Source: Zygnema cylindricum
Lineage: Eukaryota; Streptophyta; Zygnematophyceae; Zygnematales; Zygnemataceae
NCBI GenBank assembly: GCA_037447655.1
Contig: JBBHKE010002967.1
Span: 30,213 to 94,212, forward strand
Length of the DNA: 64,000 nt
Direction of reading: 5' to 3'
Shown here: piece by piece, positions 8,438-64,000 of the stretch
Layout of the letters: each line of letters begins with the position of its first letter
Numbering within the stretch: position 1 is the stretch's first letter
Program-made: the position numbers and the translations under genes
Notes under the pieces: generated by a model
What the model was told of the DNA's origin: nothing
Databases searched by the model: none
Seen by the model: the letters and a program-made list of their open reading frames with translations, nothing else

Positions 8438-8450
8438 AAAATAAGGGGAG
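8438..8450 (+). other. copia-1 polypurine tract
   Basis: AAAATAAGGGGAG lies immediately before the 3' LTR and is the presumed plus-strand primer. The same tract borders the 3' LTRs of the minus-strand copies at 49181, 54587 and 60365. Confidence 0.85.
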
Positions 8451-9499
8451 TGTAGAAACTAATGGTTCATAAGTATTTTCTAGGTCTGAAAAGAAATATA
8501 GAAGTCGAGGCAGTCTATCTCTAACTTCTCTCTCCAACTCTCAAACTTGTCGCCGTCACTGAGAAATTGGAGAGGAAGCTAGAGCCATGGCTACCTAGGC
8601 TATCTTGAGGATTACGGGAAATTTATATTAGTTTGGGTTTATTTATTTAAAAGATATGTGCCGGCGGCAGGAATTGATCCTTGTACCTACCGGCCGGCAA
8701 ACCGGAAATAGCCGTTAGCCTTAGCCGTTAAGTCTAGGATTCATGATACGTAGTATATAGTTTGATAATTTATTAAATATGTATACTTACGATTATTCAT
8801 TTAACTATAATAAATTACGGAATACATAGATCCGGTAATATATAAAGTACGGATTACGGTACGGACTAAAAATCAATACCACGCTTTTGTTTCGTAAATG
8901 AAACAAATACCGCACATGTATTTATTACGGCTACGATTAAATTAGATTCTAATCGGACGGTCGCAATTAGCGCCGAGATCGCGGAGGAAGTTTTCGGCGG
9001 TTTGTGGCCATCGCCACATCAGATGACGCGTGGCGAAATTTCGTTGGATCATGGAATCCCCGGAGATTATGGCATCGAATCCGGATATGACATGTGTCAA
9101 CATTTAGACCTTGTCGTACAATGTCCGTACCTAAAGTACACCGGCAGCTGTACTTTTGCGTACGGAACGCAATTCTGATTGGTTCCGTACATCAGTAGAT
9201 AGAGTCTGTGAGTGAGATAGGACTTAGAAAAATTAGGAGATATGACCCTCTCTCCCAGAGAGCTTCTGTACAAAAGGTCAACTTTGACCCTCCATAACTT
9301 ACGGCTCAAGGGAGCAAATTCAGAGATTCTTTTTGCTATCGACTCAGGGGAGTCTTGTCTTCACATGGGTGAAGGTGATCAGAGTTTTTGTCTGCCAGGG
9401 TGGCAGTTATTTTTGCTTAAACACAAAGGGGTTAGGATTATCCTAGAGGCTTCTTGGAAGCTGTCCACTCTGAGGACTTATGGAGGTCTCAGAGTTTCA
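8451..9499 (+). repeat. copia-1 3' LTR (1049 bp)
   Basis: A TG...CA LTR. Homologous full LTRs occur on the minus strand at 48124-49180, 53532-54586 and 59317-60364. It includes a tRNA-like patch near 8655-8740 (GGAATTGATCC read antisense). Confidence 0.95.
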
Positions 9500-45411: not shown

Positions 45412-45867
45412 TCACCCGTGGCAAAACCACTGTCCAGCCGGGATAGTGTGCAAAGGTGGAACCAAACACTCCATATGGAATCCTAAATTGCAATAGTCAC
45501 AAAGGAGCATTGTTGTTTCTCCATCAGATCGTCGGTATAATAGGCACTCAGTGGCCTTGGTAATTGGTATCCGCCACGGGTCCATGCTGTGGGAAAGATC
45601 GGGTAGATAGCAGGGGGCACAATGTTTCGAATGCTCCCCCAAAGTTCGCGTGTCGGCCCCTTGTAGGCTTAATAATCTATTGGGGTCGATTTTTGTTATC
45701 CTCAAAAATATGAGCTGACACATCCGTGTCAAGTGTATCAAAAGTTTGCCGTCGCAAATAAACGTAATCCCCCACCCGAAAGGGTTTTTGTCGTGGTCGG
45801 TAGCTGCCATTGCGAGTCGTCGCAAACCGTTAAGAGTCTTCGTGTTGGGCAATCTGCAAGTTTTCAA
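45412..45867 (-). pseudogene. gypsy A integrase tail with PHD finger
   Basis: The 151-codon frame continues the integrase C-terminus (a beta-rich FICDGKLLIHLTRM, then GADTRTLGEHS). It ends in a PHD-type Cys4-His-Cys3 finger: ECLLYRRSDGETTMLLCDYC, then GFHMECLVPPLHTIPAGQWF, then Cys. Six of eight zinc ligands are present. The second is Tyr (a likely TGT-to-TAT change) and the eighth is replaced by the terminating TGA (likely from TGC/TGT). PHD fingers read the histone H3 tail, often H3K4 methylation. In this position many gypsy chromoviruses carry a chromodomain, so a targeting role is plausible but inferred. Confidence 0.78.
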
Positions 45868-46710
45868 AAGCCATGGGCATTTCTTTAGCGAAAAGCAACG
45901 CTCGGTTAGTTAGTTCTTCCAAAAACAGAGAATTAGACATAAGTGGTAGAGGTAAGCTCGCGGCTTTCTGTACATTCCTACCTAGTAGTGGTTTCCGACC
46001 AAATAACACATAATAAAGGCTGAAATTTGCCATACTGGCCTGTACAGACATGCGATAACCCATGACAATACATCCCAATGATTCATCCCACACTGTAATC
46101 TGTTTTTCTCAGCAATGTTTACGCAAAGCACGCTTAAAGGTTTGTACTGCTCTCTCTGCCAAACCATCTGCTTGAGGATGATCTCGGCTCGTCCGCCGGT
46201 GATCCATTAACGCCTCGTCCAGCATCTCCTGAAATTCACCGCGGAACTCGGTTCCTTGGTCGGTAAGTACTTCTGCCGGGGCTCCGTATCGGAGTAACAC
46301 ATACTCTTTGAAAGCTGCCGTGGTGAGTTTGGCAGTTTTCTGTGAAAGGGCCACAACTTCCACCCATTTGCTGAAATTTTTGATCATAATCATAATGTAC
46401 TGCTTGCCCCTTCGAGAAATGGGAAAGGGTCCTGCAAGATCACACGACCACCTGTAAAAGAGACCCCGAATAGGCAAGGGCTGAAGGGAGGTTTGTCGGT
46501 TAGAAAATAAAGTTCTTAGCCGGTCACAGATGCTGCATTCGTGCAACACAGCCGCCACATCAGCCTGCATGCCGGACCACCAATAACATGCCTGTACCAA
46601 ACTCAAAGTCCGTTTGGTGCCATAGTGTCCAAGGTCAGTACGAATTTGGTTGATAAGTGATAATCGTTCCGTCGGTCGTGGGACATGCCGGTGACTTCCA
46701 TCTTAGAGAA
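45830..46710 (-). pseudogene. gypsy A integrase (broken)
   Basis: The zinc-binding tail reads CYWWSGMQADVAAVLHECSI with Cys-x2-Cys (CSICDR). The catalytic core follows: WSCDLAGPFP (first Asp), LTDQGTEFRGEF (second Asp), and the Glu region in MLDEALMDHRRTSRDHPQADG. The frame breaks at 46109 and resumes as MGYRMSVQASMANFSLYYVL and FGRKPLLGRN, the gypsy integrase C-terminal part. Single-base damage in several places. Confidence 0.88.
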
Positions 46711-46898
46711 GACGAATAAGTGAGCCCCCCATCCATAAGTAACTTTGGGCTCTCTTACGAACACGCTCCTCTTCCATTGGTAAGGTGCCCGCCCGAAAAG
46801 ACTGAGTAGATAGGAAAAGAATTAAAGCACTGTCCCGCCACGGATCGTGTTCGGTTTTGTGATATGTAGGTGCGGAAAAACTGTAGATCTGATGCGCT

Positions 46899-48113
46899 TC
46901 AGCCGATAGGGAGGCAACCGTTTCGCCATCCAAAATCCTGTCGTACACCGTTATCATTGGAGTGGGGCAAAGGGTTCATTGAGAGGCCGTCGGCATTCAA
47001 ACCGAGGAGCCCCGGTCGATGGATTATTTCCATGTCATATTTCTGCAAAATAAGAGCCCAACGAGCTAATTTGCCGGATAGCTTGTCATTGGTCATGAGC
47101 CAATGCAATGGTTGATGGTCAGTAAGAAGGGTAAAAGGCTTGCCATAGAGATAATGTCAGAAATGCACAATACCCCAAACTGTGGCATGGCACTCCCCCT
47201 CATAACTACTGTAATTTGACTCTGCTTGATTGTTTCTCCGACTGGCATAAGCCACCACATATTCCTCACCTGTGAGTTCACGCTGAGTTAGGATGGCTGC
47301 AATACCGGGCTTACCAAAGTTCGTCTGTAGGCAAAATGGCAACTTCTGATTTGGGGGACGAAGAATACGAGCGGTGGACAGTGCGTCCTTTAAGCCGTGT
47401 AATGCCTTGATCTGAGAGGGTCTCCACGTGAACGGGAGTGATTTCTTCAAGAGTTCATTTAATGGAGATGCAACTGTGCAGAAACTAGGAACAAACCGTC
47501 GGTAATAATTGGCTAACCCCAGAAATGCACACAGGCTAATCAAATCAGTTGGGGCCGGTAGTTTACTAATTGCTTCCACTTTGACTTATAGCGGAGAAAT
47601 TCCCTGAGATGAGATAAAATGCCCAAGGTATGGGACCCCTTCGGCCCCAAAGTTACATTTGGCAAGATGACATTTAAGTCCCACTTTTTTTTAATTCCTT
47701 CTACACCCACTCTATATGCAATGCATGTTCCTCTATAGAGGCTGAAGCGATGATTAGATCGTCGATATAGCAACGGGCAAACTACACCCCTCTAAGACTG
47801 AGTCCATGACTTTTTGGAATACTGCCGATGCATTCTTCAGTCCAAAGGGCATAAAAGCCCATTCCCAATGTCCGTCACTACCCCAAAAAGCAGTTTTGTG
47901 TCGATCTTTTTCCTCTATTTCGATTTGATTAAATCCCTGTCGCAAATCTAGGATGCCAAAATATTTAGCTCCGCCCACGTGATCAAAAATGTCCTCGGCC
48001 AACGGCATTGGATGTCGGTCCTGGATTATACGTGAATTCAGTTCTCGATAGTCCCCACACATGCGACGTTCTGTAAAATTCCCCTCCACGTTTTTTTTAC
48101 GGGGCATGACAGT
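46899..48113 (-). pseudogene. gypsy A reverse transcriptase and RNase H (broken)
   Basis: RT begins PTVMPRKKN, with RRMCGDYRELN and YFGILDLRQGFNQIEI, then AFMPFGLKNASAVFQ. A frameshift near 47780 moves the catalytic CYIDDLII box (about 47751-47772) to another frame, though its residues are intact. The connection/RNase H part follows: FLGLANYYRRFV, LPFTWRPSQ, then EEYVVAYASRRNNQAESNYS, the last continuing after another break to RWALILQKYDMEIIHRPG. Activity is ruled out by the breaks. Confidence 0.88.
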
Positions 48114-48123
48114 GGGCGCCGCG

Positions 48124-49180
48124 TGAAACTTTGAGACCTCTATAAGTCCTCAGAGTGGACAGCTTTCAAGAAAACTCTAGGATAACCCTGACCCCTTTGT
48201 GTTACATCAATAATAAGTGCCACCTGGCAGACAAAAACTCTGACCACCTTCACCCCTTTGAAGGCAAGACTCCCTTGAGTCGATAGCTAAAAGAATCTCT
48301 TGAATTTGCTCTCCTGAGCAGTAAGTTATGGAGGGTCAAAGTTTACCTTTTGTACAGAAGCTCTATGGGAGAGAGGGTCCTATCTACTAATTTTTTCTAA
48401 GTCCTATCTCTCTCACAGACTTTATCTACTGATGTACGAAGCCAATCAGATTACACTTCCGTACACAAAAGTACAACTGACGGTGTACTCGATGTACGAA
48501 CAATGTACGACATGCCTAAATGTCGACACGTGGTATATCCGGATTTGCTCCCTTAATCCTCGGAGATGTCGCGATCCAATATTATTCTGCCACGTGTCAT
48601 CCGATTGGCAATGACCATAAACCGCCGAAATCCTCTAATGCGATCTGGGCATTCATTCCGGCCGTCTGATTAAATGCACATTTAATCGTAGCCGTAATAA
48701 ATACCTGTGCGGTATTCGTTTCGCTATCCAAACAAATGCGCGGTACTTGCTTCATATCCGTACCGTACTTCGTACTTCTTCATAACTGAACCTATGTATT
48801 CCGTAAGCAGTTGTTGTTAAATGAAATATCCTACATAGTAACGTTTAAATAATTATCAGACCACATAGCACGTATCATTAGTTCTAGACCTAACACATAA
48901 GGTTAGTGTCTACCTGGTGTCTGCCGGCCGGCATGTACCAGGATCAAATCCTGGATGCATCACTAATTCTTTTAGTAAATAAACTACCATTAAATAAATC
49001 AACTAATTCATTTCCCGTAAACCTCTGATAGCTTAGGTAGCCATGGCTCTAGCTTTCTCTCCAATTTCTTAGTGACTGCGACAAGTGTGGGAGTTGGAGA
49101 GAGAAGTTAGAGATAGACTGCCTCGGCTTCTTTCTATTTAGACGTAGAAAATACTTAAAACAGAACCATCAATTTCTACA
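48124..49180 (-). repeat. copia-2 3' LTR (1057 bp)
   Basis: Full-length TG...CA LTR, begins (plus strand) TGAAACTTTGAGACC and ends TCAATTTCTACA. Contains the antisense tRNA-like patch CAGGATCAAATCCTGG (48938-48953). Confidence 0.95.
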
Positions 49181-52100
49181 CTCCCCTTATTTTCTAGTCA
49201 ATCTTTAATTTTTAGACCTCACTTCTCCTTGCAGAAAATCAGCTTAGAGGAAGGCACAGATTTGGTCATCATATCTGCTACCATCTCGCTATCTGGTCGG
49301 TACTCTAAACTGATTATTTTGTTTTCTACTTTCTCTCTAACAAACCTTAGTCTAATGTCCATGCGTTTGGCTTTAAAATGATGTTTAAGATTGGCAGAAA
49401 TGCGATTGCTGCCTGATTATCACAATAAATTTTCTACACACCACTTTTAAGGTGACCAAGCTCACCAAGCAAAGACTTGACCCACATCAATTCTTTTACA
49501 ACAGAGCAAGAGGCCATATACTTTGCCTCCATGGTGGATTGAGCAATAACCTTTTGCTGTTTGCTACTCCAACAGCAAGCCCCATCACCCACATATAATA
49601 CATACCCAGAAGTACATCTCCTCATAGGAGCATCACCATAACTGGCATCACTCCCAATAGCGATGTTAGTATTCTCCCCACCCAAATGCAACCATAGATC
49701 CCTAGTTCCTATCAAATATATAAGGACTCTCTTATTTGCCTCCCAATCCCTCATAGTGGGAGCATTTAGACTTCTACTCAGCACTCCTACAACAACAGCT
49801 AAATCCGGCCGGGTACAATTCATAAAATAGATTAGACTTCCCACTACTTGCCTGTAAGGAATAGTTTGCATGAACTTCTGTTCTTCAGGAGATAATTCCT
49901 CTTCTAAGACTATGACTCATTCTTCCTCACTCCCCTCACTTCCTTTCTTTAACTCCATTGGAGTTGTACAACTATTAGCTTTATCCATCTGAAATTTGTC
50001 AAGCATGTTCCCTATTGCTTCCTTTTGAGTCAATCTTATAATCTTTCTTTTTCGGTCTCTTTCTTTTTGAATTCCCAAAATATATTTTGCTTCCCCCATA
50101 TCCTTCATTTTAAATCTTCCCTTAAGATCGGTTTTCAATTTATTAATTTTTTCCATTGATTTAGTTAAAACAAGCAAGTCATCAACATAAATTGCAATAA
50201 ATATAACACATTCCTCATCTTCAAAAACATAGATTGAGTGATTTGAGATGATCCCTATATATCCCAGACCGGTAAGAAACTCATCAAGCTTCTTATTCCA
50301 CTGTTGAGGCACCTGTTTCAAACCATAAAGAGATTTAATCAGTCGGCATACCTTACTCTCCTCTCCTTCCTCCACAAACCCTTCGGATTGTCGCATGAAG
50401 ATCTCCTCTTCCAATTTTCCATGCAAAAAGGCTGTCTTGATGTCCATCTGGTGCACTTCCATGTCTTTTGCTGCTGCCAGACTGAGAAGTATGCGGACGG
50501 AGGGAAATCTGACGACCGGCGCAAAGGTTTCCTCTTAGTCAATTCCCTCCTTTTGTGTAAATCCCTTTGCCACTAATAGGGCCATGTAGCGCTCGATTGT
50601 GTCATCTGGGTTCAGTTTTAGTTTGAAAACCTACTTACAACCGATTGGTTTTCGGTTAGGTGGACAATCCACCAGCTCCGAAGTATCGGCTGCCATAATT
50701 GAGGCCATCTCCTCATTGATGGCTGTCTTCCACCGGTTTCTTTCTGGACAAGTCATCGCCTCTCCATAAGTCCGAGGTTCATCTTGATGAGATAGTTTAG
50801 TTACCTTGTTATTAACCTGTTTTTCTTGCAGTCTTTTGCTACTTCTCCTCCCTCCCTCAAAATCTGAGGCCGGAATAGATGGTTCTCGTGGATTCTTTCG
50901 AACAAACTCGGCTTCTCCCCTATCCCTTGATTCCGAATCAATTTCCACCACGTCTTCCGCTTCGAGTAGAGTTGTCACTGGAGTTTCCACAGCCGAGTCC
51001 TTTTCGGTCTGATTTGTACCTGCAATAATGTCATCTTCTCTAAAACGTGGATAGTTAGGAAGCTCAAAGTCATCGGAATTTTCTGACTCAAATCTGATTT
51101 TTACTGACTTTGTATATTTGAAAGGATCCACAGACTTTCCTTCATCCATAACTACTAGATGCTTTACTAAGATTATATCTTCCTTTTTTAGATCATAAAC
51201 TCTGTATTGTTTAACATCCTCATCATATGCTAAAAAGTATCCTGATTTTCCTTTAGGATCTAGCTTCCTATTAGACAGATTTGTATCCAGACTGAATACT
51301 TGACTGCCGAAAACCTTTAAGTGAGATATGTCTGGTTTCCAGCCTGTCCATTTCTCATAAGGTGTTTGATCTTTTATAGCTGAAGTAAGAACTCTATTTT
51401 TGAGGTAATTAGCATAGTTCATTGCTTCTGCCCAAAACCTTTTTCCTATCTTCTTATCTGACAACATACTTTTATCACTCTCACTTAGAGTTCTATTTAA
51501 CCTTTATGCTACCCCATTCTGTTCCGGGTTTTCTGGAACTGTCTTTTGGTGTTGGACTCCTTCTTCCCTCAGAAAATCCTCAAACTGGTTAGAAGTATAC
51601 TCTCCACCATTGTCACTTCTTACTCTCTTGATTGGAGTTTCATGGAGTTTTTTGCTCCATGCTTTATATTGTCTAAAACAGTCCTCAGCTTTTGACTTAT
51701 TTTTCAAAAAATACACCCGCGAATACCGAGACCAATCATCATTGATAGTCATCATAAATCTCTTCCCCCCCGGTTAGGGCACTTTAGCCGGTCCCCAAAT
51801 ATCTGTGTGTATTAGATCTAGAATTTTTTCTCCCTTATAGGTGGCTGTTTTAGGAAAGGGTAATCTGTGTGCTTTACCTTGAGCACATCCACTATAATCA
51901 CTTATATTATCACTCTCACTGAACTGAATCCCTTCCACCACTCCCATCTTTTTCCTCTCTTTTAACTTATCTAGATTCACATGCCCAAGCCTCTTATGCC
52001 ACATCATAATATCATGAACACTAGCATAATAAAGCTTCTTTGTTTCATTACTTAAAATCAGCCTAAACATCCCTTGGCTACCTTTCTCAGCAATGAAATA

Positions 52101-53527
52101 GACATCCTCCTCAAAATTAGCAGTAAAGACTCCTTCCCTAGTGCTAGTAATAAAACCCTTATCATCTAATACAGATGTAGAGATGAGGTTTTTGTTCAGC
52201 TCCGGAATAAACAATACATCAGAGAATGTTACTATTGATGTCTTTCGTTCTACTAACACTTGGAGATCTACCGATCCTACAACAGTAGTAGTGACTATCC
52301 TCCCATTCCCGTACTCTATATCTACGGTGGGAATCTTTCTTATCTTAGTGAACAGGTGCTTATCCTTACACATGTGCATAGAGGCACCTGAATCTATAAT
52401 CCAGCCTGCTTCACCTTTCAATCCACCTTAACACATTTATGCCTTCGTGGAATTCCGACCTCGTTTTTTGCCTCCAACTCCTCATCCAATAAGAGCTCAT
52501 CGTCCTTGTCCTCGGATTTTGCCTCATGTACCTGGGTCACAAGGGCCTTTTTCTTTCCTCTTGGGGTGCCATTAGTCTGCCCCTCTTTTAACCGAAGCTC
52601 GATAAGCTTAGTGCATTCTGCCATATAGTGCCCCCGTTTCTTACAAAAATAACATAAACCTTTGGGAGCCTTTGGTCCGAACTCGACAGTCTGATTTTTC
52701 TGCTCCCTCCCTCCATAGTTTCTGGCCGGTTTTCGTGAATCCTTGTTCCTCCAATCGGTCGTAGTTGCCAGGGCTTGCCCACTCTTTCCTCCCCTTTGGA
52801 TCTCAATCGTATTCTCCCGAACGAGAATCATCCCTACCACCGAGTTCCATATCCACCTTGAGTCCGAAGGGTCCTGCACATGGTTGACTATGTTCTCGAA
52901 CTCATTTGGTAACTTCATCGGTAAACAGTTAACCTTTTCTTTTTCACTAAAAACTTTTCCCGCACTCTCTAGCTCCATGAAGAGTGTAGCAAGCTCATTG
53001 CAAAAATCCAACATCTTCCCCCCTTTGTATACATACTCCTTAACTTTCTGATCAGCCAACTGTTGTTGCTCAATCGTACCACTTCGGTACATGTCTATGA
53101 GAGCCATCCAAAGATCGGATGCCCTTTCTACTTGCAAATGAGGACATGCAAGCCCTTGAGTAAGATGGCGGAGGATGAAGTGCTTTGCCGCCATATTGAT
53201 GAATTTCCAGGTATCAGTATCATTCTCCTCGTTCCTCGAAATAGGTGACATGAATGCTGAACCATTTGCTATTGGTGTGGTTGTCTCCTTCTCTTTTTTT
53301 TTGTCCACCACCTTTCCTTCCTTTGTCTCCTCCGTTGAAGATGGATCTGGTTTTGTTGTGAATCTGCTTCCTCCAAACCCTGGAGGGATTCCAAAACTTG
53401 ATGGACGCCCCACTCGTCCACTCACTATCCCCCAAAACCTTTTCTCGCATAGAGCTCATGTCATCATACTTTCCCAATATATGAAGCGAGTTCCATTAAA
53501 GATGGGTACCCTAGAGGGTGGGCCCAT
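49181..53527 (-). pseudogene. copia-2 gag-pol polyprotein (broken)
   Basis: Sense order: gag from the ATG within the primer site (53527), with an intact CCHC knuckle (CYFCKKRGHYMAEC, near 52615-52660); retropepsin WIIDSGASMHMC near 52390; GAG-pre-integrase with MWHKRLGHVN; integrase (SDNGGEYTSNQFE, PENPEQNGVAE; break at 51504-51467); RT 50690-49917 with IYVDDLLVL; RNase H 49871-49200. About five stops or shifts interrupt it, fewer than in copia 1. The broken 335-codon gag frame is the best gag in the window. Confidence 0.9.
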
Positions 53528-53531
53528 AACC
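53519..53531 (-). other. copia-2 primer-binding site (internal initiator tRNA-Met)
   Basis: The sense strand reads GGTTATGGGCCCA immediately after the 5' LTR, followed by CC. All 13 bases, and probably 15, are complementary to the anticodon stem-loop of plant initiator tRNA-Met. The central ATG pairs with the CAT anticodon and is the likely gag start. Confidence 0.85.
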
Positions 53532-54586
53532 TGAAACTCTGAGACCTTTGTAAGTCCTCAGAGTGGACAGCTTTCAAGAAGCCTCTAGGATAACCCCCCT
53601 TTGTGTTACAGCAATAATAACTGCCACCTTGGCAAACAAAAACTCTGATCATATTCACCCATTTGAAGGCAAGACTTCCTTGAGTCGATAGCAAAAAGAA
53701 TCTTTGAATTTGCTCTCCTGAGCAGTAAGTTATGGAGGGTCAAAGTTTACCTTTTGTACAAAAGCTCTATGGGAGAGAGGGTCCTATCTACTAATTTTTT
53801 CTAAGTCCTATCTCTCTCACAGACTTTATCTACTGATGTACGAAGCCAATAAGATTACACTTCCGTACACAAAAGTACAGTTGCCGGTGTACTTTATGTA
53901 CGAACAATGTACGACATGCCTGAATGTCGACACGTGGTATATCCGGATTTGCTCCCTTAATCCTCGGAGATGCCGCGATCCAATATTATTCTACCACGTG
54001 TCATCCGATGTGGCAATGACCATAAACTGTCGAAATCCTCTTCCGTGATCTCGGCATTCATTCCGGCCGTCTGATTAAATGCACATTTAATCGTAGCCGT
54101 AATAAATACCCGCGCGGTATTCGTTTCGCTATCGAAACAAATGCGCGGTACTTGCTTCATATCCGTACCGTACTTCGTACTTCTTCATAACTAAACCTAT
54201 AAATTCCGTAAGCAGTTGTTGTTAAATAAAATATCCTACATAGTAACGTTTAAATAATCATCAGACCACATAGCACGTATCATTAGTTCTAGACCTAACG
54301 GATAAAGTTACTGTCTACCTGGTGTCTGCCGGCCGGCAAGTACCAGGATCAAATCTTGGATGCATCACTAATTCTTTTAGTAAATAAACTACCATTAAAT
54401 AAATTAACTAATTCATTTCCCGTAAACCTCTGGATACCTTTAGTAGCCATGGCTCTAGCTTCCTCTCCAATTTCTTAGTGACTGCGACAAGTGTGGGAGT
54501 TGGAGAGAGAAGTTAGAGATAGACTGCCTCGGCTTCTTTCTATTTAGACCTAGAAAATACTTCAAAGAGAACCATCGATTTTTACA
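53532..54586 (-). repeat. copia LTR shared between copia 2 and a copia-3 fragment
   Basis: 1055 bp. It acts as 5' LTR of copia 2. On its other side the polypurine tract and RNase H end of another copy (54587-54935) follow, so it is also that copy's 3' LTR. This is the arrangement left by LTR-LTR recombination or a tandem array. Confidence 0.92.
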
Positions 54587-54935
54587 CTCCCCTTATTTTA
54601 TAGTCAATCTTTAATTTTTAGACCACACTTCTCCCTGCAAAAAATTAGCTTAGGGGAAGGCACAGGTTTGGTCTTCATATTTGCTACCATCTCGCTATCT
54701 GGTCTGTACTCTAAACTGATTATTTTGTTTTCAACTTTCTCTCTAACAAAGCTGAGTTTAATGTCCATGTGTTTGGCTTCAAATGATGTTTAGGATTGGC
54801 AGAAATAGCGATTGCTGCCTGATTATCACAATAAATTTTCTGCACACCACTCTTAACTTGACCCACATCAATTCTTTTACAGCAGAGTAAGAGGCCATAT
54901 ACTCAGCCTCCATGGTGGATTGAGCAAGAACCTCA
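54587..54935 (-). pseudogene. copia-3 RNase H end, truncated
   Basis: The terminal part of copia pol, colinear with 60365-60735 but with a ~35-bp internal deletion (near 54855) and extra substitutions. It stops after the words for the catalytic STMEAEYMA region (GAGCAAGAACC), and gypsy sequence begins directly. Confidence 0.85.
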
Positions 54936-56112
54936 CATTGGCCACATTGATCTGATTTTCCTTGATCCTCCGTCCATCCATCCCTTCAAGTGTCAAGACC
55001 CCCTTATTGGAGACTTCCACTACTTTCAAAATCACCCTCCCCGCTGAAATGTCAAGAGTGTCCTTTTTCTGTTGCATCCGATACACAAAATCCCCGGGCA
55101 GAAATCGCCGTTGCCGCGGGACAAAATTCCCATTCCGGCGTTGCGAATACCGGAGTTGATCTTGGAGCTGAGTTGCTTGTAAATATCCCATGGCCAGAGG
55201 CATTTCCCGGTGAAATACCTTGGCCCTGTCGGGAATCAATTTTTCAACCGTTCCCTTGCTGTCCATCTCCGGAAGGACCACTGCTTGGGCCGAGGTAGCG
55301 CCGGGGAGGATGGGATGCCGTCCGAACAAAATGAAATATGGGCTGTAGGAGTGGAGGGATGCTTGCCGGCTGAATCGGTACCCCATGGCGATCTAAGGCA
55401 CCCTTCTATCCCACTCTCCTAGATCCTCTTCCACAGCATATTTACGCAGTGACCGCTTCACTGTCTGCATGCACCTTTCGGCCAAACCGTCGGCTTGTGG
55501 GTGGTCTCGGCTGGTCAGCCGGTGGTCTATGAGGCACAATTCCAACAAGTTGGAGAATTCTCCCGCAAATTCGCAGCCGTGGTCGGTCATAAATTCGGTT
55601 GGGGACCCAAATTGGGAAAGCACTTTCTACAAGAATGCGTCTGCAATCGCCTTGGACTCCTTCCTGGGTAAGACCACCAATTCGATCCACTTGGAAAAAT
55701 GCTCTATCATTACCAATACAAAGCGGTTCCCTCGTCTGCTAGTGGGGAGAGGACCCAGAAGATCTAGAGACCACCGATAAAACATTCCCCTGATGGGAAG
55801 GGAATGAAGCTGAGAACCTCCCTTTTTGTCGAAAGCTGCTTTGACTCGGTCACAGAAGAAACACGTCTGCACAATCCGATTGACTTGGGTCTGCAACCCG
55901 TGCCACCAATACGACCCTGCGACCAAGGAGGTGGTCTGTTTCTGCCCAAAATGGCCACACTGCTGGTGAAGGTTAAAAATAACAGTCTCCTTGTCGGCCA
56001 GGGGAGGAACCACTTTCCTCGTCCCATCAGCCCACTTCCGGATTAAGATGCCCCTTTCCCTCTCGTATGCCGCCATTCGTGTTTCCACCTGAGATAACTG
56101 CACTCTTGACAA
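54936..56112 (-). pseudogene. gypsy B1 integrase (broken, 3'-truncated)
   Basis: The HHCC zinc finger is complete (HQQCGHFG, then CFFCDR). Core: YRWSLDLLGPLP, MTDHGCEFAGEF, then IDHRLTSRDHPQADGLAERC. The C-terminal module (RRFLPGDFVYRM, GVLTLEGMDGRRIKENQINV) ends where copia sequence begins. No PHD finger is present; if this family has one like gypsy A, it was lost at the junction. Confidence 0.88.
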
Positions 56113-56469
56113 ATGCTAAAAAGGGTATCCTTGTTGGACAGATTCGAGAGCCTCTAGATCGTTCCAAATATCTTTCCGTCCAGCCCCTATTGGCGCCTGC
56201 CCCTCCACGTCTGCAGAGAAAGTTGAGATTTCCCCCAGAGATTGAGGAAGCCAAATAAAGGCAGAGGAAGCTCGAATGAGTCCCAAATTGATTTTCAGGA
56301 TCCTCATCATGGCGGGCCCCGGTGGAATCTCTAGTGGAAGGGTCAGGATTTCTGCTAAGTCCATCGACATTCCCATGAATCTCTCCAGCCCGTTGGATTA
56401 TGTCGAAGTCATATTCCCGCATTATTAATACCCACTTGGCGAGCTTGCCAGTGAGCTTGCTGTTCTCCA

Positions 56470-57780
56470 TGATCCACTTGAGGGGTTGGTGATCCGTGAT
56501 CAGAGTGAAATGGACTCCGTATAGGTATGGTCTGAAGTGTTGGATGGCCTATACCGCCGCCAGTAAATCCCTGTGATAGCTGTTGTAATTCCCCTCCGCT
56601 CGGTTATTTCTCCTACTAGCGTAAGCTACCACATATTCGGCCCCAGCATCATCCAATTGGGCTAAAACAGCCCCCAATCCAAACCGGCTCCAATCAGTGT
56701 AAAGGAGGAATGGTCTTTGGTGATCAGGCATTCGGAGCACAAGGTGTTGCTTCAAGGAATCCTTGAGGAACTGGAAGGCAATTTGTTGCTCCTCTGTCCA
56801 CTGCCACTCCTAGTCTTTCCGCAGCAACTGGTTCAGAGGGTGAGCGTGGCTGCTAAATTCAAGGATGAATCTCCGATAATAGTTAGCCAGGCCTAAAAAT
56901 GTGCGGAGTGTAGAGACGTCCTGAGGATGGGGTAGGGCATCAAGGGCTGCAACTTTGACCATATGGGGACCCACTGTCCCGGGTGTAACTTCGTGTCTCA
57001 AGTAAATAATTTTGTGCACCCCCAAAATTCCCTTGCCTGGGTGACATTTCAAGCTCGCTACTTGGAAGAGCTCGGAGTACAATCAGTATGTGCTCCAGGT
57101 GTTCATCGAAGGTCTTTGAGAAGATAATAACATCGTTGATATAATAGCGTGCACAGTCAATCTTCCGGAGTGCCTCGTCCATGGCACGTTGGAATTTGGC
57201 TGGCGCATTCTTTAATCCGAATGGCATGTAGAGCCATTCATACAACCTGGACCATTCCCAAAAAGCTGTCCTTTCCCGGTGCTTTGGCTCCATCGCGATC
57301 TAGTGGAACCCATTCTTCATGTCTAGTGTGGAGTAAATGGTGGCCCCGGCCAGCGAGTCAAAAATCTCTTCCGGGGTAGTCATTCGGTATCGGTCAGGTA
57401 CAGTTGCCGTGTTAAGCATCTGGTAATCTCCACACATCCGAAAGTCTACTGTTTTCCCAGATGAGTCCTTCTTGGGTGGGAGAACGGTTGGAGACGCAAA
57501 TCCATGGAGTCTAGTACTTTCTTGAATCAATCCTGCTTCTACCATAGTTTGTACCTTTGCCGTGATGAACTCTTTTTCCTTGAAACTGACAGGGTACTGC
57601 TTCTGCCAAATAGTAGACGTCTCGTCTATTAAATCTATTCGAAAAGGGGTTCATTTGTAGATGCCTACGTCGGTATCTGACCAAGAGAACACTTGTTTGT
57701 TCTTCTCCAACAGGTCGGAGAGTTGGGCCTTTTGCTGAGGGTCCAACTGCTCTCCTAAGGTCCAATCCATCTTTCCACCG
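56470..57780 (-). pseudogene. gypsy B1 reverse transcriptase and RNase H (broken)
   Basis: RT segments: VEAGLIQESTRLHGFASPTV, KTVDFRMCGDYQMLN, ATIYSTLDMKNGFH, then LYEWLYMPFGLKNAPAKFQR. The catalytic box reads RYYINDVIIF at about 57123-57149, so the first Asp of YxDD is Asn; this enzyme would be dead even without the frame breaks. RNase H follows as RPFLLYTDWSRFGLGAVLA and EYVVAYASRRNNRAEGNYN (56755-56549), then KWVLIMREYDFDIIQRAGEI. Confidence 0.88.
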
Positions 57781-58104: not shown

Positions 58105-59060
58105 GTTTTATCACCCAAGTTATTGTATTTAGATCCATGCTTTGTCCGAGTAGGCTGCACCGTTGGAGGTCTGAAATACCTGGTGCCGCCGTACTGGCAG
58201 GTTGGAATCCCATGGCTTGTTCTCGTTCTTTCACCATTGGTGTTGTCCAAACTCCACTTTTGCTGTCAAATATCATTTCCGCCGCTCCCTTTCGATACGC
58301 ATGGCTGTTGGGGAAGGAAACCAATGTTGGCAGTGCTCGCCGTGGTGCTCTTGGTTGGTTGCACTAGCACAACGGAGGACGATCAGCCTTAGTTATCGGA
58401 GTGGCCATCCGTCCTGGCCCTAAAATTTGTTGTAGGGTAATCTGGGGATCTGTTTGGTGGTTTTGTAAGAGCTGGTTTAGGACTGACTGAGGTATCAAAT
58501 TGGTAAAGTATGCCTGAACTCTGTGAGCCCTCAATCCCAGTTGCGCCGCATTGAAAACAAGTGGAGCTCCCAGAATCTGCTTGACTTTATTCCTGCTATT
58601 TGCGACTTGTTTCCTGTTATCATCTCCTGGGTGGACATTCTCCAAAACGTACCCCACTGGTTGGTCTTGGGACTGTTGCAGCCAGGAAAGTAATTTGATC
58701 ATCTAGAAGAAGGTTCGACTTCCGCTGTCCTGATGTCCCTCGCCTTTCCCGGCCAGAGAGTATCCTTGACATGGCCATCATGCAATCACCAAATCCACGC
58801 GCTCCAGCATAGCAAGATGTGGCTTTAGGATATGGTCTATATTTTGCGGAACACTTCGGTGAGATCTGTAGATGGCGGATACCGGAAGTTGCTGGGGATA
58901 CAATTGGTGGAGTTCTTGTAGTTGGTATTCAGTGACGGCCCGAGCATCCGGTGAAATTTCCACGGCCACATATGACTCCACTTTGTTCCAAGCTTTCAAA
59001 ATAGCTTCGAGGTCCGAGCTAATTCCAGAAAATAGGGATAATATCCGGAGTCCAGAATCC
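58105..59060 (-). pseudogene. gypsy B1 Dnmt3/DRM-like cytosine-5 DNA methyltransferase (broken)
   Basis: Transfers methyl from SAM to cytosine C5. Motif I LRILSLFSGISSDLEA (59015-59045); YVAVEISPDA after it; motif IV WPCQGYSLAGKGEGHQD with the catalytic Cys codon at 58769-58771; motif VI LENVHPGD; motif VIII RAHRVQAYFTNL; C-terminal EREQAMGF and LLGQSMDLNTITWVI (58110-58150). Motif order is unpermuted (I to X), as in animal Dnmt3 and unlike plant DRM, while AHRV-x-AY-x-x-NL resembles both. Damage: TAG before motif I, TGA replacing Gly just before WPC (58778-58780), TAG near 58703, and frame changes. It lies upstream of RT in the same orientation, as part of the element. Confidence 0.85.
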
Positions 59061-59251: not shown

Positions 59252-59254
59252 CTA
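59252..59254 (-). other. in-frame TAG shared by both methyltransferase gypsy copies
   Basis: The sense strand reads ATA ATA TAG CAA TTC. The same stop and context occur in copy B2 (63874-63876). Frames on both sides encode similar peptide in the two copies, so this may be a read-through stop between gag and pol products, or an inherited mutation. Confidence 0.4.
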
Positions 59255-59316: not shown

Positions 59317-60364
59317 TGAAACTCTGAGACCTCCATAAGTCCTCAGAGTGGACAGCTTCCAAGAAGCCTCTAGGATAATCCTGACCCCTTTGTGTTTAAG
59401 CAAAAATAACTGCCACCCTGGCAGACAAAAACTCTGACCAACTTCACCCCTGTGAAGACAAGACTCCCCTGAGTCGATAGCAAAAAGAATCTCTGAATTT
59501 GCTCCCCTGAGCAGTAAGTTATGGAGGGTCAAAGTTGACCTTTTGTACAGAAGCTCTCTGGGAGAGAGGGTCCTATCTTCTAATTTTTCTAAGTCCTATC
59601 TCTCTCACAAACTCTATCTACTGATGTACGGAACCAATCAGAATTGAGTTCCGTACGCAAAAGTACAGCTGCCGGTGTACTTTATGTACGGACATTGTAC
59701 GACATGGCCAAAATGTCGACACATGTCAAATCCGGATTCGGTGCCATAATCTCCGGAGATTCCACAATCCAACAGAATTTCGCCACGTGTCATCCGATGT
59801 GGCGATGGCCACAAACCGCCGAAATTCTCCTCCGCGATCTCGGCGCTAATCTCCGCCGTCCGATTAAATTCGGCTTTAATCGTAGCCGTAATAAATACAT
59901 GCGCGGTATTTGTTTCATTTACGAAACAAATGCGCGGTACTGATTTGTGTCCGTACCGTAAGTCGTACATTATTTATTACTGGATCTATGTATCCCGTAA
60001 TTCATTTCAGTTAAATGATTTATCGCTTGTATACATATTTAAATAAATATCAAACTATATTCTATGTAACACTACTGCTAGACTTAACGGCTAAGGCTAC
60101 CGGCTAATTCCTATCTGCCGGCCGGTAGGTACATGGATCAAATCCTGCCGCCGACACATACCTTTTAAATAAATAATTAAATCCTAACATAAAATTCCCG
60201 TAAACCTCAGGATAGCCAAGGTAGCCATGGCTCTAGCTTCCTCTCCAATTTCTCAGTGACTGCGACAAGTTTGAGAGTTGGAGAGAGAAGTTAGAGATAG
60301 ACTGCCTCGACTTCTATATTTCTTTTCAAACCTAGAAAATACTAATAAACCATTAGTTTCTACA
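59317..60364 (-). repeat. copia-4 3' LTR (1048 bp)
   Basis: TG...CA LTR, visually closer to copia-1's 3' LTR (8451-9499) than to the copia-2 LTRs (for example the CTTTAATCGTAGCCG and GCCGCCGACACATA segments). tRNA-like patch ATGGATCAAATCCTGCC at 60133-60149. Confidence 0.93.
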
Positions 60365-61849
60365 CTCCCCTTATTTTCTAGTCAATCTTTAATTTCAGAC
60401 CACACTTCTCCCTGCAGAAAATTAGCTTAGGGGAAGGCACAGGTTTGGTCATCATATCTGCTACCATCTCACTATCTGGTCTGTACTCTAAACTGATTAT
60501 TTTGTTTTCTACTTTCTCTCTAACAAAGCTGAGTCTGATGTCCATGTGTTTGGCTTTAAAATGGTGTTTAGGATTGGCAGAAATAGCGATTGCTGCCTGA
60601 TTATCACAAAATATTTTCTGCACACCACTCTTAAGGTGACCAAGCTCACCAAGCAAAGACTTGACCCACATCAATTCTTTTACAGCAGAGCAAGAGGCCA
60701 TATACTCAGCCTCCATGGTGGACTGAGCAATAACCTTTTGCTGTTTGCTACTCCAACAGCAAGCCCCATCACCCACATATAATACATATCCAGAAGTACA
60801 TCTCCTCATCGGAGCATCACCATAACTGGCATCACTCCAAGTAGTGATGTCAATATTCTCCCCACCCAAATGCAACCATAGATCTCTAGTTCCTACCAAG
60901 TATCTAAGGACTCTCTTAGCTGCCTCCCAATCCTTCTTAGTGGGAGCATTTAGACTTCTACTCAGCACTCCTACAGCTGCAGCTAAATCCGGCCGGGTAC
61001 AATTCATAAAATAGATTAGACTTCCCACTACTTGCCTGTAAGGAATAGTCTGCATGAACTTCTGTTCATCAGGAGACAATTCCTCGTCTAAGACTATGAC
61101 TCCTTCTTCCTCACTCCCCTCACTTCCCTTCTTCAACTCCATTGGAGTTGTACAACTATTAGCTTTATCCATTTGAAATTTTTCAAGCATGTTTCCTATT
61201 GCTTCCTTTTGAGTCAATCTTATAATTTTCCTTTTTCGGTCTCTCTCTACTTGAATTCCCAAAATATATTTTGCTTCCCCCATATCCTTCATTTCAAATC
61301 TCCCCTTAAGATCGGTTTTCAGTTTATTAATTTTTTCCATTGATTTACTTAAAACAAGCAAATCATCAACATAAATTGCAATAAATATAAAACCTTCCTC
61401 ATCTTCGAAAACATAGATTGAGTGATCTGAGCTGATCCGAATATATCCTAGACCGGTAAGAAACTCATCAAGCTTCTTATTCCACTGTCGGGGCGCCTGT
61501 TTCAAACCATAAAGAGATTTAATCAGCCGGCATACCTTACTCTCCTCTCCTTCTTCCACAAACCCTTCGGGTTGTCGCATGAAGATCTCCTCTTCTAATT
61601 CTCCATGCAAAAAGGCTGTTTTGATGTCCATCTGGTGCACTTCCATGTCTTCCGCCGCTGCTAAACTGAGAAGTATGCGGACGGAGGGAAATCTGACCAC
61701 CGGGGCAAAGGTTTCCTCGTAGTCAATTCCTTCCTTTTGTGTAAATCCCTTTGCCACTAATCTGGCCTTGTAAAGCTCGATTGTGTTATCTGGGTTCAGT
61801 TTCAGTTTGAAAACCCACTTACAACCGATTGGTTTTCGGTTAGGTAGAG
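59317..61849 (-). mobile_element. Ty1/copia element 4, 5'-truncated and joined to gypsy
   Basis: 3' LTR (59317-60364), polypurine tract, and an intact RNase H and RT reading frame up to 61849, where gypsy B2 RT sequence begins abruptly. Gag, protease, integrase and 5' LTR are missing. The left flank is gypsy B1 (ends CATAGA). Confidence 0.92.
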
Positions 61850-61853
61850 CCAT
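60378..61853 (-). CDS. copia-4 reverse transcriptase/RNase H, intact partial frame
   Basis: 491 uninterrupted codons from the RT N-terminal region (PNRKPIGCKWVFKLKLN) through FAPVVRFPSVRILLSLAA, HQMDIKTAFLHGELEEEI, LYGLKQAPRQWN and IAIYVDDLLVLSK to RNase H (TRPDLAAAVGVLSRSLN, WSDASYGDAP, STMEAEYMAS, CDNQAAIAIS, KHMDIRLSFVRE) and the stop before the polypurine tract. All catalytic residues expected for both enzymes are present. It lacks a natural start and its 5' half, so it is not an independent gene. The lack of stops suggests a young or recently copied element compared with copia 1. Confidence 0.9.
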   Translation of the reverse strand: MALPNRKPIGCKWVFKLKLNPDNTIELYKARLVAKGFTQKEGIDYEETFAPVVRFPSVRILLSLAAAEDMEVHQMDIKTAFLHGELEEEIFMRQPEGFVEEGEESKVCRLIKSLYGLKQAPRQWNKKLDEFLTGLGYIRISSDHSIYVFEDEEGFIFIAIYVDDLLVLSKSMEKINKLKTDLKGRFEMKDMGEAKYILGIQVERDRKRKIIRLTQKEAIGNMLEKFQMDKANSCTTPMELKKGSEGSEEEGVIVLDEELSPDEQKFMQTIPYRQVVGSLIYFMNCTRPDLAAAVGVLSRSLNAPTKKDWEAAKRVLRYLVGTRDLWLHLGGENIDITTWSDASYGDAPMRRCTSGYVLYVGDGACCWSSKQQKVIAQSTMEAEYMASCSAVKELMWVKSLLGELGHLKSGVQKIFCDNQAAIAISANPKHHFKAKHMDIRLSFVREKVENKIISLEYRPDSEMVADMMTKPVPSPKLIFCREKCGLKLKID

Positions 61854-62661
61854 TCATACAACCTAGACCCTGCCCAAAAAGCTGTCCTTTCCCGGTGCTT
61901 TGGCTCCATCGCGATCTGGTGGAACCCATTCTTCATGTCTAGTGTGGAGTAAATGGTGGCCCCGGCCAACGAGTCAAAAATCTCTTCTGGGGTAGGCATT
62001 GGGTATCGGTCAGGTACAGTTGACGTGTTAAGCATCCGGTAATCTCCACACATCCGAAAGTCTACCGTTTTCCCAGATGAGTCCTTCTTGGGTGGGAGAA
62101 CGGTTGGAGACGCAAATCCATGGAGTCCGGTACTTTCCTGCACCAATCCTGCTTCTACCAGAGTTTGTACCTTTGCCGTGATGAACTCCTTTTCCTTGAA
62201 ACTGAGAGGGTACTGCTTCTGCCAAACAGTAGACGTCTCGTCTATTAAATCGATTCGGAAAGGGGTTCCTTTGTAGATGCCTACGTCGGTATCTGACCAG
62301 AAGAACACTTGTTTGTTCTTCTCTAACAGGTCGGAGAGCTGGGACTTTTGTTGAGGGTCTAAATGCTCCCCTAAGGTCCAATCCATCTTTCCGGGTTCCA
62401 CCGCTGCCCAGGCCTCCGGGGTCTACCCCTGCGGGAGGTATCGAATTCTATCTCTACCTGCGGGTCTACCTCATCTCCTCCCGTTAGAATGCTGCTGCTA
62501 ACAACTTCCGCTAAGTTATCCCTTTCCGAGCCTCCTCTCCCCCTCACTGAGGAATCCCTTAATTTCGGTGAAATGCTGGGACTGGAAATTTTTGATGATA
62601 AAAATTGTTTTCTTGCCTCCCCCCCCTCCTCAAGCTGCAAGTAGGCCTGCACCGCTAACAA
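61850..62661 (-). pseudogene. gypsy B2 linker and reverse transcriptase N-terminal half
   Basis: The linker is Ser/Gly/Asp-rich (SSSILTGGDEVDPQVEIEFD). The RT N-terminus runs WTLGEHLDPQQKSQLSDLLE, VQESTGLHGFASPTVLPPKK, KTVDFRMCGDYRMLN and ATIYSTLDMKNGFHQIAMEP, and breaks off at RLYEWLY, where copia sequence takes over in a different frame. The 199-codon frame crosses the join and ends shortly after. The YxDD box is missing because of the join. Confidence 0.88.
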
Positions 62662-62729
62662 CTTTGGAGCTTGAAGGTAGCGATTCCTCGATTGCGGAGA
62701 CAGTTAGCTAGAGCTGGCCAGAGAATGTT

Positions 62730-63690
62730 TTATCACCCAAGTTATTGCATTTAGATCCATGCTTTGTCCGAGTAGGCTGCACGGCTGGAGGTCTGAAATA
62801 CCTGGTGCCGCCGTACTGGCAGGTTGGAATCCCATGGCTTGTTCTCATTCTTTCATCGTTGGCGTTGTCCAAACTCCACTTTTGCTGTCAAATATCATTC
62901 CGACAGCTCCCTTTCGATAGGCGTGGCTGTTGGGGAAGGAAACCAATGTTGGCACAGCTCGCCGTGGTGCTCCTGGTTGGTTGCACTAGAAGAACGGAGG
63001 ACGATCAACCTTAGTTACCGGAATGGCCATCCGTCCTGGCCCTAAAATTTGTTGTAGGGTAATCTGGGGATCTGTTCAGTGGTTCTGTAAGAGCTGGTTC
63101 AGGCCTGACTGAGGTATCAAATTCTTCCAGTATGCCCGAACTCTGTGAGCCCTGGATCCTAGTTGCGCCGCATCAAAAACAAGTGGAGCTCCTAGAATCT
63201 GCTTGACTTTATTCCAGCTATTTGCGACTTGTTTCCTTTTATAATCTCCCGGGTGGACATTCTCTAAATCGTACCCCACTGGTTGGCCTTGAAATTGTTG
63301 CAGCCAGGAAAGTAATTTGATCATCTGGAAGAAGGTTTGACTTCTGCTGTCCTGATGTCCCTTGCCTTTCCCGGCTAGAGAGTATCTTTCACATGGCCAT
63401 CCTGCAATCACCAAATCCACGCACTCCAGCATAGCGAGATGTGGCTTCAGGATATGATCTATATTTTGCGGAACACTTCGGTGAGATCTGCAGATGGCGG
63501 ATACCGGAATTTGCTGGGGATACAATTGGTGGAGTTGTTGTAGTCGGTATTCACTGATGGCCCAAGCATCCGGTGAAATTTCCACGGCCACATATGACTC
63601 CACTTTGTGCCCAGCTTTCAAGATAGCTTCGAGGTCCGAGCTAATTCCAGAAAATAGGGATAATATCCGGAGTCCAGAATCTGGGATAGA
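62730..63690 (-). pseudogene. gypsy B2 Dnmt3/DRM-like cytosine-5 DNA methyltransferase (nearly intact)
   Basis: The best copy: one 240-codon frame (63798-63076) covers KEKEPRLESSEVPPKN, motif I LRILSLFSGISSDLEAILKA (63637-63667), VAVEISPDAWA, motif IV DLVIAGWPCERYSLAGKG with catalytic Cys codon 63391-63393, motif VI DLENVHPGD (ENV at 63256-63264) and motif VIII RAHRVRAYWKNL (63130-63150). A stop then replaces the QT seen in copy B1 (QNHQTDPQ). The C-terminal target-end motifs (GVWTTP, EQAMGFQP, LLGQSMDLNAITWVI) follow to about 62730 with two further stops. No separate promoter or terminator is visible, so it is read as part of the retroelement polyprotein. Family placement between Dnmt3 and DRM is by eye. 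Confidence 0.88.
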
Positions 63691-63873: not shown

Positions 63874-63876
63874 CTA
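63874..63876 (-). other. in-frame TAG upstream of the B2 methyltransferase
   Basis: Matches the TAG at 59252-59254 in copy B1 including flanks (ATA TAG CAA TTC). The upstream frame (ATHTPTELLASATDIADII) and downstream frame (QFPISKRWEEGYQNRLLQI) are both conserved between the copies. Confidence 0.4.
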
Positions 63877-64000
63877 TATTATGTCTGCGATATCGGTGGC
63901 GCTGGCGAGCAGTTCCGTGGGTGTGTGAGTGGCATAGACGGGATAACATCCATTAACGGGAGCATTATCTTTCCCCCTATTCCATAGATCCAGGGGAACC

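What the first reader, a model, noticed from the sequence alone, without database searches (positions are those of the whole stretch)
62730..63690. Gypsy retrotransposon family carrying a Dnmt3/DRM-like cytosine methyltransferase
Two gypsy copies (B1 at 58105-59060, B2 at 62730-63690) encode, just upstream of and in line with reverse transcriptase, a protein with cytosine-5 methyltransferase motifs: FSG (I), WPC with catalytic Cys (IV), ENV (VI), RAHRVRAYW (VIII) and a terminal LGQSMDL. The order is unpermuted, unlike plant DRM. Capture of such enzymes by LTR elements has, as I recall, been reported in dinoflagellates and charophyte algae; the Dnmt3-like type and its position before RT deserve comparison. 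A transposon methylating its own copies, or blocking restriction-like silencing, would be a self-regulation system. Function is inferred; motifs are seen.
Basis: partly seen in the sequence, partly recalled or inferred. Interest (0 to 1): 0.92.

Follow-up and report, generated by a model that had tools for sequence, protein, structure and literature searches.

The report
Retrotransposons carrying a DNA methyltransferase
Jumping genes in this green-plant-lineage genome carry their own DNA-methylating enzyme, kept by selection and apparently made by reading through a stop signal; the kind was known from one alga, but it looks older, more widespread and built in two ways.

Summary
The motifs are real. 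B1 and B2 are decayed copies of a Gypsy retrotransposon whose Pol carries an unpermuted Dnmt3-type cytosine methyltransferase before RT (PF00145 E 3e-10; the 50 fold matches listed are all DNMT3 entries). It is not DRM. The kind is known: KnitGypsy-Dnmt3 of Klebsormidium nitens (2018). One genomic copy has a 1520-codon frame, MTase-RT-RNaseH-integrase-PHD, and split repeats A-coding-B-A-B as reported there.

Not seen in ten library searches: (1) an in-frame UAG CAA UUC between protease and MTase, before 205 of 229 genomic junction sites and in three subfamilies saturated at synonymous sites, predicting stop-codon readthrough; (2) a second, diverged MTase-gypsy family in this genome, to which the window's third gypsy belongs; (3) relatives in Closterium, Marchantia, chlorophytes and metagenomes in two domain orders, best explained by one old capture and one relocation; (4) motif IV reads ECQ, not PCQ, in 42 of 70.

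The MTase is under purifying selection (omega 0.07-0.10 between subfamilies). Its target is inferred; CpG content shows no self-methylation footprint.

The parts
63877..64000 (-). B2: end of the frame upstream of the stop (tail after the protease), runs off the window
   Evidence: frame reading; continues in L040 (G000:C2229:92500-101500)
63874..63876 (-). B2: conserved in-frame UAG between protease and methyltransferase (candidate readthrough stop)
62740..63672 (-). B2: Dnmt3-type methyltransferase domain, motifs I to X; open from 63873 to 63079, then three in-frame stops before motif X
   Evidence: PF00145 E 3.2e-10, DNMT3 in PDB, frame reading, AlphaFold2 mean pLDDT 86.3 and Foldseek for the open part
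61844..62739 (-). B2: linker and first part of reverse transcriptase, RT frame shifted against the MTase frame; joined at about 61844 to a copia fragment
   Evidence: RVT_1 E 2.5e-7
59252..59254 (-). B1: the same in-frame UAG
   Evidence: (L012)
58120..59050 (-). B1: Dnmt3-type methyltransferase domain with three in-frame stops
   Evidence: 86% protein identity to B2 over 240 codons; frame reading
57083..57776 (-). B1: reverse transcriptase, with stops and a frame change before it
   Evidence: 91% identity to the B2 RT over 184 codons
56549..56809 (-). B1: RNase H, by likeness to the domain in L021; no Pfam run of its own
55438..56115 (-). B1: integrase, by likeness to the domain in L021; no Pfam run of its own
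54934..55392 (-). B1: integrase C-terminal part, cut at about 54933 by copia before any PHD finger
45415..48123 (-). Third gypsy, family 2: RT, RNase H, integrase, PHD finger; its upstream part is cut off by a copia LTR ending at 48124
   Evidence: PHD E 1.4e-8; RT 87% to L044; pol tree

Best explanation
B1 and B2 are dead copies of a large Gypsy-Dnmt3 retrotransposon family of the KnitGypsy-Dnmt3 kind, in a streptophyte genome. The element is A - gag-protease - UAG - [Dnmt3 methyltransferase - RT - RNase H - integrase - PHD finger] - B - A - B. Ribosomes mostly stop at the UAG and make Gag-PR; a minority read through UAG CAA UUC and make the long polyprotein, so enzyme and RT are packed at a fixed low ratio to Gag (inferred from the conserved stop, the nucleotide-level constraint after it, and the lack of an AUG before motif I in nearly all copies of two of three subfamilies). 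The methyltransferase enters the particle with RT and integrase and most likely methylates cytosines of the new cDNA before or at integration, so that the insert resembles the host's methylated DNA, is shielded from deamination or sensing, or damps further transposition (inferred, not shown). The domain was captured once, early in the green lineage, and later changed place within Pol between 'before RT' and 'between RNase H and integrase' (inferred from trees; direction open). My estimates: identity and architecture 0.95; UAG readthrough 0.8; single capture with relocation 0.7; action on the element's own cDNA 0.45.
For: Identity. Architecture: a 1520-codon uninterrupted frame in L021 with PF00145 E 8e-13, RVT_1, RNase H, H2C2, rve and a weak PHD; an aspartic-protease match (E 2e-4, just under its cut-off) ends one stop codon upstream in the same frame. 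Copies: 150 scored of 1478 candidates; junction motif 229 times, reversed control once; family 2, 126 match rows from 125 scored of 1796 candidates. Selection: median omega between subfamilies 0.07-0.10 for the MTase, 0.03-0.04 RT, 0.15-0.28 linker. Stop: TAG in 31 and TAA in 2 of 33 distinct copies, TAG in 2 of 3 more; TAG before 205 of 229 junction sites; 7 of 8 informative codons after the stop nucleotide-identical between subfamilies against 209 of 706 elsewhere, Fisher p 0.0013; Met between stop and motif I in 7 of 7 A, 1 of 20 B and 1 of 6 C copies. Repeats A-coding-B-A-B. Single capture: type I is one side of a branch in the MTase tree, 99/97; the pol tree has a clade of 101 rows, SH-aLRT 97, that holds all 59 rows with type I or II MTase, 40 rows whose upstream part is unseen and 2 without MTase.
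Against: No direct evidence of activity; the K. nitens relative gave no methylation in yeast, which its authors call inconclusive (section seen). CpG o/e of the elements (0.62-0.72 in eleven copies; B1 0.65, B2 0.64; third gypsy 0.83) is not below that of three copia stretches without MTase (0.55-0.66) or of the host gene (0.57). RNA structure after the UAG is inconclusive: z -2.18 to 0.05 in four copies; the only compensatory pair is in another helix. In subfamily A an AUG follows at codon 19. In RT and INT some nine-codon windows also reach 8 identical codons, though in PR and MTase none of 122 exceeds 5. The context is CAA UUC, not the tobamovirus CAA UUA (comparison recalled). The pattern count is made on sites whose following letters are kept, and the planned control for another codon did not complete. 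ECQ in motif IV in many relatives could mean altered or lost catalysis. Two members of the pol clade, P0099 and P0114 (K. nitens), have long upstream parts and no detected MTase. Roots of both trees are midpoints, and type I is not one clade in the pol tree.
Confidence: 0.7

Rival explanations
1. The domain is kept for binding nucleic acid or protein (for instance as part of the RT or integrase complex) and not for methyl transfer.
For: Motif IV reads ECQ in 42 of 70 aligned enzymes, also in a member whose frame is open over 2395 codons; K. nitens domain inactive in yeast (authors: inconclusive); no CpG footprint.
Against: The catalytic Cys is kept in 66 of 70, the motif VI Glu in 65 of 70 and the two motif VIII Arg in 65 and 67 of 70; the whole domain is under purifying selection. 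The window's family has the ordinary PCQ.
Confidence: 0.25
2. The enzyme acts on the host genome or on competing elements: a weapon against rival transposons or DNA viruses, or a brake tolerated because it lowers harm to the host.
For: High copy number and several copia insertions beside and within the gypsies; the antiviral idea is argued in PMC6338049 (passages seen).
Against: Placement inside Pol next to RT, behind a candidate readthrough stop, points to packaging with cDNA rather than release into the nucleus; not tested.
Confidence: 0.2
3. Types I and II are two independent captures of a Dnmt3 domain by related gypsies.
For: Different place in Pol; clean split of the MTase tree by architecture; the 2018 paper argues independent captures between K. 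nitens and dinoflagellates and two within Symbiodinium DIRS.
Against: MTase-bearing elements lie in one pol clade in which PHD fingers are common, and PCQ and ECQ occur in both types.
Confidence: 0.25
4. The UAG simply ends a Gag-PR frame and the MTase-Pol frame starts by itself (internal start, reinitiation or splicing).
For: Met at codon 19 in 7 of 7 subfamily A copies.
Against: No Met before motif I in 19 of 20 B and 5 of 6 C copies (where motif I was not recognised the first 80 codons were scanned); same frame on both sides of the stop and 27 nucleotides of constraint just after it.
Confidence: 0.15

Closest known systems
KnitGypsy-Dnmt3 (Klebsormidium nitens; de Mendoza et al. 2018, PMC5890265; abstract, parts 1-2 of 7 of the text, sections 9-11 and found passages seen)
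   Same: Gypsy Pol with unpermuted Dnmt3 domain, MTase before RT (P0012), repeats arranged as in DIRS (and the legend of Fig. 4c), purifying selection on the domain.
   Different: Here a UAG separates protease and MTase (the partial P0012 reads on in one frame; its protease side judged by eye); a PHD finger closes the frame (not in the partial P0012); two MTase families in one genome with at least 229 junction sites and 125 scored places. A word search of that paper found no 'PHD' and no 'readthrough'.
SymbioDIRS-Dnmt3 and SymbioLINE-Dnmt (dinoflagellates, same paper)
   Same: Retroelement-encoded cytosine methyltransferase; the DIRS ones are Dnmt3-type, share a frame with RT, and also come in two domain orders.
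   Different: Tyrosine recombinase or endonuclease instead of a DDE integrase; unrelated element classes.
Animal DNMT3A/B and plant DNMT3
   Same: Motif order and fold; best PDB and Foldseek matches.
   Different: No PWWP or ADD match in L021; part of a retroelement polyprotein. Plant DNMT3 sequences were not at hand for comparison.
Readthrough-expressed plant viruses (tobamovirus type) and retroelements
   Same: UAG followed by CAA; the TMV context gave 32% readthrough in plant tests (passage in PMC2754532); that paper cites rice gypsy elements among candidates.
   Different: UUC, not UUA, after CAA (TMV letters recalled); the stop lies after the protease.

Membership tests
C5 cytosine methyltransferase (PF00145) | profile match and motifs I, IV, VI, VIII, X | tested here: met
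Dnmt3 | closest to DNMT3 in sequence and fold, unpermuted order | tested here: met
Dnmt3 | falls inside the eukaryotic Dnmt3 clade in a tree with Dnmt1/2/5, CMT and DRM | not tested
   only a human DNMT3A fragment was used, and it sat on a long branch
DRM | permuted motif order; closest to DRM2 | tested here: not met
   (DRM2 E 0.003) against a host DRM exon (DRM2 E 3e-30); order unpermuted
Gypsy (Ty3) LTR retrotransposon | order PR-RT-RNaseH-DDE integrase | tested here: met
   protease match just under its curated cut-off
KnitGypsy-Dnmt3 | Dnmt3 in the Gypsy Pol frame, before RT | tested here: met
KnitGypsy-Dnmt3 | repeat arrangement A-coding-B-A-B | tested here: met
   one copy read to both ends (C1374), with a foreign 3.7 kb stretch and a duplicated tail inside it; L030 and L038 agree in part
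KnitGypsy-Dnmt3 | groups with the K. nitens sequence in trees | tested here: met
   same side of the 99/97 branch in the MTase tree; in the pol tree P0012 is in the same clade of 101, its place inside unresolved
DIRS | tyrosine recombinase | tested here: not met
   rve DDE integrase in the frame, no recombinase match
Programmed stop-codon readthrough | readthrough product made | not testable with these tools
   needs reporter or mass spectrometry

The most novel reading that the evidence does not exclude
A single old capture of a Dnmt3 gene founded a green-lineage-wide clade of Gypsy elements (streptophyte algae, at least one land plant, chlorophytes). In it the enzyme changed place within Pol, its motif IV reads ECQ or PCQ in different lines, and in this genome one family came under control of stop-codon readthrough: a virus-like system in which a retroelement doses its own DNA methyltransferase into the particle and writes an epigenetic mark on its cDNA.
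Probability: 0.35. Interest if true: 0.85.

Novelty: new variant of a known kind. Interest (0 to 1): 0.62.

Why it matters
Transposons are the classic targets of cytosine methylation, so why some carry the enzyme has been an open puzzle since 2018, resting on one alga and dinoflagellates. A large clade with natural variation (two domain orders, two forms of motif IV, with and without the stop, decayed and intact copies, members in the model liverwort) makes the question testable by comparison and in a tractable host. A 2019 opinion paper states that DNA-methylase transposons are not present in land plants such as tracheophytes (passage); the Marchantia proteins would extend them to a bryophyte.

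Tried and rejected
Chance motif: rejected by Pfam, fold and copy number. DRM-like: rejected. Bacterial-type enzyme: HhaI E 8e-5 against DNMT3A 4e-14. Self-methylation footprint by CpG content: none. RNA hairpin after the stop: inconclusive. Target-site duplication at the one copy read to both ends: not seen by eye. Host species: not established; assembly figures seen in passages on Closterium and Zygnema did not settle it; a DRM exon argues for a streptophyte, following PMC12344493 (passage). A first protein search with the 240-aa frame found nothing among 312 candidates; the longer query did. Host Dnmt3 gene: none recognised (150 scored of 542), but the rows were not inspected one by one and exons match in pieces. 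A control on retention of another codon did not complete. Rows dropped: L034, L035 and L040 as repeats of other copies, L004 (unrelated upstream, TTG), L036 (not spanned), L022 and L024 (no junction); L014 and L015 look alike and were both kept. L043, L048 and L050 were looked at later: TAG in two, no pattern match in L050. In one search pairs with synonymous distance up to 0.01 or saturated were left out (for PR only 4-5 pairs between subfamilies remain). In one search three MTases under 220 residues were dropped. The tandem repeat, promoter and tRNA tools were not used.

Full report
Observation. The frame 63798-63076 (-) holds FSG, WPC, ENV and RAHRVRAYW; Pfam gives DNA_methylase, E 3.2e-10, cut-off passed. 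PDB sequences rank DNMT3C, 3A and 3B first. A model of the open frame (265 aa, 29 sequences, mean pLDDT 86.3) finds DNMT3 entries in all 50 rows listed, of 1349 matches with E up to 10. B1 has the same frame at 86% identity with in-frame stops; in both copies motif X lies further on in the same frame, and the RT frame is shifted. Copia copies with LTRs of about 1.05 kb cut B1 on both sides and the third gypsy in RT; B2's RT is joined to a copia fragment.

The element in the genome. The window lies in a 352.8 Mb assembly of 2689 contigs. The frame matches 150 places scored of 1478 candidates. In L021 (C1374) one frame of 1520 codons reads MTase (E 8e-13), RT, RNase H, H2C2, rve and a weak PHD finger (E 0.0044, under its cut-off). 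A protease match (Asp_protease_2, E 2e-4, just under its cut-off) lies one stop upstream in the same frame; a 716-codon frame with Cys-His knuckles, seen by eye, lies further upstream and is taken as Gag, though Pfam finds no family in it. Stops disturb L021 between the two. L023 has a 1525-codon frame. The MTase of L021 scores DNMT3A 4e-14, HhaI 8e-5, DRM2 0.003. In C1374 the ends are A (1186 bp) - coding - B (212-218 bp) - A - B, the two A copies 97.8% alike, with TGTCAAGC...GCTCGACA termini and a B|A junction that looks like joined ends. A 3.7 kb foreign stretch and a duplicated tail lie before the second A, so this copy is not pristine. The 2018 paper describes the K. nitens repeats as those of a DIRS element (legend).

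Selection. Three subfamilies A, B, C are saturated or nearly so at synonymous sites (median dS 1.1 to 2.9). Median omega between them is 0.07-0.10 for the MTase (20, 32 and 60 pairs), 0.03-0.05 PR (4-5 pairs), 0.03-0.04 RT (25-50 pairs), 0.04-0.06 INT, 0.07-0.09 for the C-terminal part, 0.15-0.28 for the linker; within subfamilies the MTase gives 0.27-0.38 and RT 0.22-0.40, as expected where decay mixes in (copies with 85% or more of a domain; Nei-Gojobori, stops skipped). The MTase is held by selection, less strictly than RT.

The stop. Of 33 distinct spanning copies 31 have TAG and 2 TAA in frame between protease and MTase; of three more, two have TAG and one has no pattern match. Genome-wide the motif just after it occurs 229 times, reversed control 1, and 205 of these have TAG before it. 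The codons after the stop, CAA TTC CCN ATT TCC AAG CGG TGG GAA, have the same majority letters in the three subfamilies but for N: 7 of 8 informative codons against 209 of 706 elsewhere (Fisher p 0.0013); in PR and MTase none of 122 nine-codon windows exceeds 5, though RT and INT windows reach 8. Met occurs before motif I in 7 of 7 A, 1 of 20 B, 1 of 6 C copies (motif I was recognised in 24 of these 33). I read this as programmed UAG readthrough. Folding is inconclusive. Of 18 type I relatives, 12 have frames running 230 or more residues upstream of the MTase without a stop (P0002, 6, 8, 12, 27, 29, 58, 61, 62, 67, 116, 135), and 6 begin within about 50 residues of it; predicted proteins with a stop would have been split, so this says little about how often the stop occurs.

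Second family. A DNMT3A query found a further set of places (150 scored of 542). L044 joins such an MTase to an RT that is 87% identical to that of the window's third gypsy over 83 residues, against 52% for L021. That set has 126 match rows from 125 scored of 1796 candidates, with frames up to 2395 codons; a stretch of the 2395-codon frame reads GWECQG (PF00145 E 3.5e-13). The lists were not checked for overlap by script. The third gypsy ends in a PHD finger, E 1.4e-8.

Relatives. Two protein searches gave 134 proteins (P0002-P0135): 17, and 120 listed of 360, three of them repeats. Of 135 with P0001, sorts 18 with MTase before RT (type I), 44 with MTase between RNase H and integrase (type II), 1 likely type II, 4 MTase-integrase pieces, 3 other and 65 without detected MTase, many of which begin just before RT so that the upstream part is unseen. 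Named members: K. nitens, Closterium sp. NIES-54 and Marchantia polymorpha in type I; Monoraphidium, Haematococcus and Pleodorina in type II. Three other K. nitens proteins (P0070, P0090, P0114) show no MTase. In the pol tree (118 rows, quick method) one clade of 101 (SH-aLRT 97) holds all 16 type I and 43 type II rows, 40 rows with unseen upstream part and 2 without MTase (P0099, P0114); the other 17 rows are 14 long ones without MTase and 3 unseen. Type II is one clade of 44 that includes P0099; type I is not one clade there. In the MTase tree (70 rows, 21 type I, 48 type II and pieces, 1 unplaced) type I is one side of a branch, 99/97, bootstrap not fully settled. One capture with a relocation is the simplest reading; the direction is open, since roots are midpoints and no plant host Dnmt3 was at hand.

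Motif IV. Of 70 MTases 42 read E, 25 P, 1 A at the position before the Cys, 2 have gaps; the Cys is kept in 66. E and P occur in both types.

Host. A DRM exon (DRM2 E 3e-30) points to a streptophyte; the species is unknown.

Literature. De Mendoza 2018 (PMC5890265: abstract, parts 1-2 of 7, sections 9-11, passages) reports KnitGypsy-Dnmt3 as an independent capture in the K. nitens lineage. PMC12344493 (2025, passages) names streptophytes and dinoflagellates for retrotransposon DNMT3. PMC6338049 (passages) says such transposons are not present in land plants such as tracheophytes. The listings showed no title or abstract reporting the stop, the two domain orders of Gypsy-Dnmt3, the ECQ motif, or chlorophyte and Marchantia members; only open-licence papers are held and few were opened, so this is weak evidence of novelty.

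Mechanism. Shown: domains, order, selection, conserved stop, repeats. Inferred: readthrough, packaging with RT, methylation of cDNA. CpG o/e of 0.62-0.72 in eleven copies, against 0.55-0.66 in three copia stretches and 0.57 in the host gene, does not support self-methylation, but host methylation of all these could hide it.

Noticed in passing
L051, P0006, P0009, P0014 and others: Motif IV of 42 of 70 retroelement methyltransferases has Glu in place of Pro before the catalytic Cys, which is nearly always kept; it occurs in both architectures.
   Followed up: partly
P0116 (Mp_2g26090), P0135 (MARPO_0091s0058): Two Marchantia polymorpha proteins join a Dnmt3-type domain to RT and RNase H: a land-plant member of this element kind, possibly a relic or domesticated.
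   Followed up: partly
L052 (G000:C2414:41300-42000): Exon of a host DRM methyltransferase (DRM2 E 3e-30), suggesting a streptophyte host; a second hit at C2414:27597 was not looked at.
   Followed up: partly
window 3822-9499 (+), 48124-53625, 53532-54933 and 59317-61848 (-): A copia family with LTRs of about 1.05 kb, four copies or fragments, three of them ending directly in or beside gypsy sequence; two share one LTR in tandem.
   Followed up: partly
window 26206-35865 (-): Host gene of autophagy-related protein 2 (ATG2_CAD E 8e-16 in one piece, above cut-off, and 4e-7 in another, below it).
   Followed up: partly
window 1-522, 23175-23552: Long simple repeats coding Arg/Glu-rich or Ser/Pro-rich frames, repeated at both places and inverted at 1454-1632.
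   Followed up: no
P0099, P0114: Members of the MTase-bearing pol clade with no detectable methyltransferase: likely losses or unseen parts, useful as controls.
   Followed up: no
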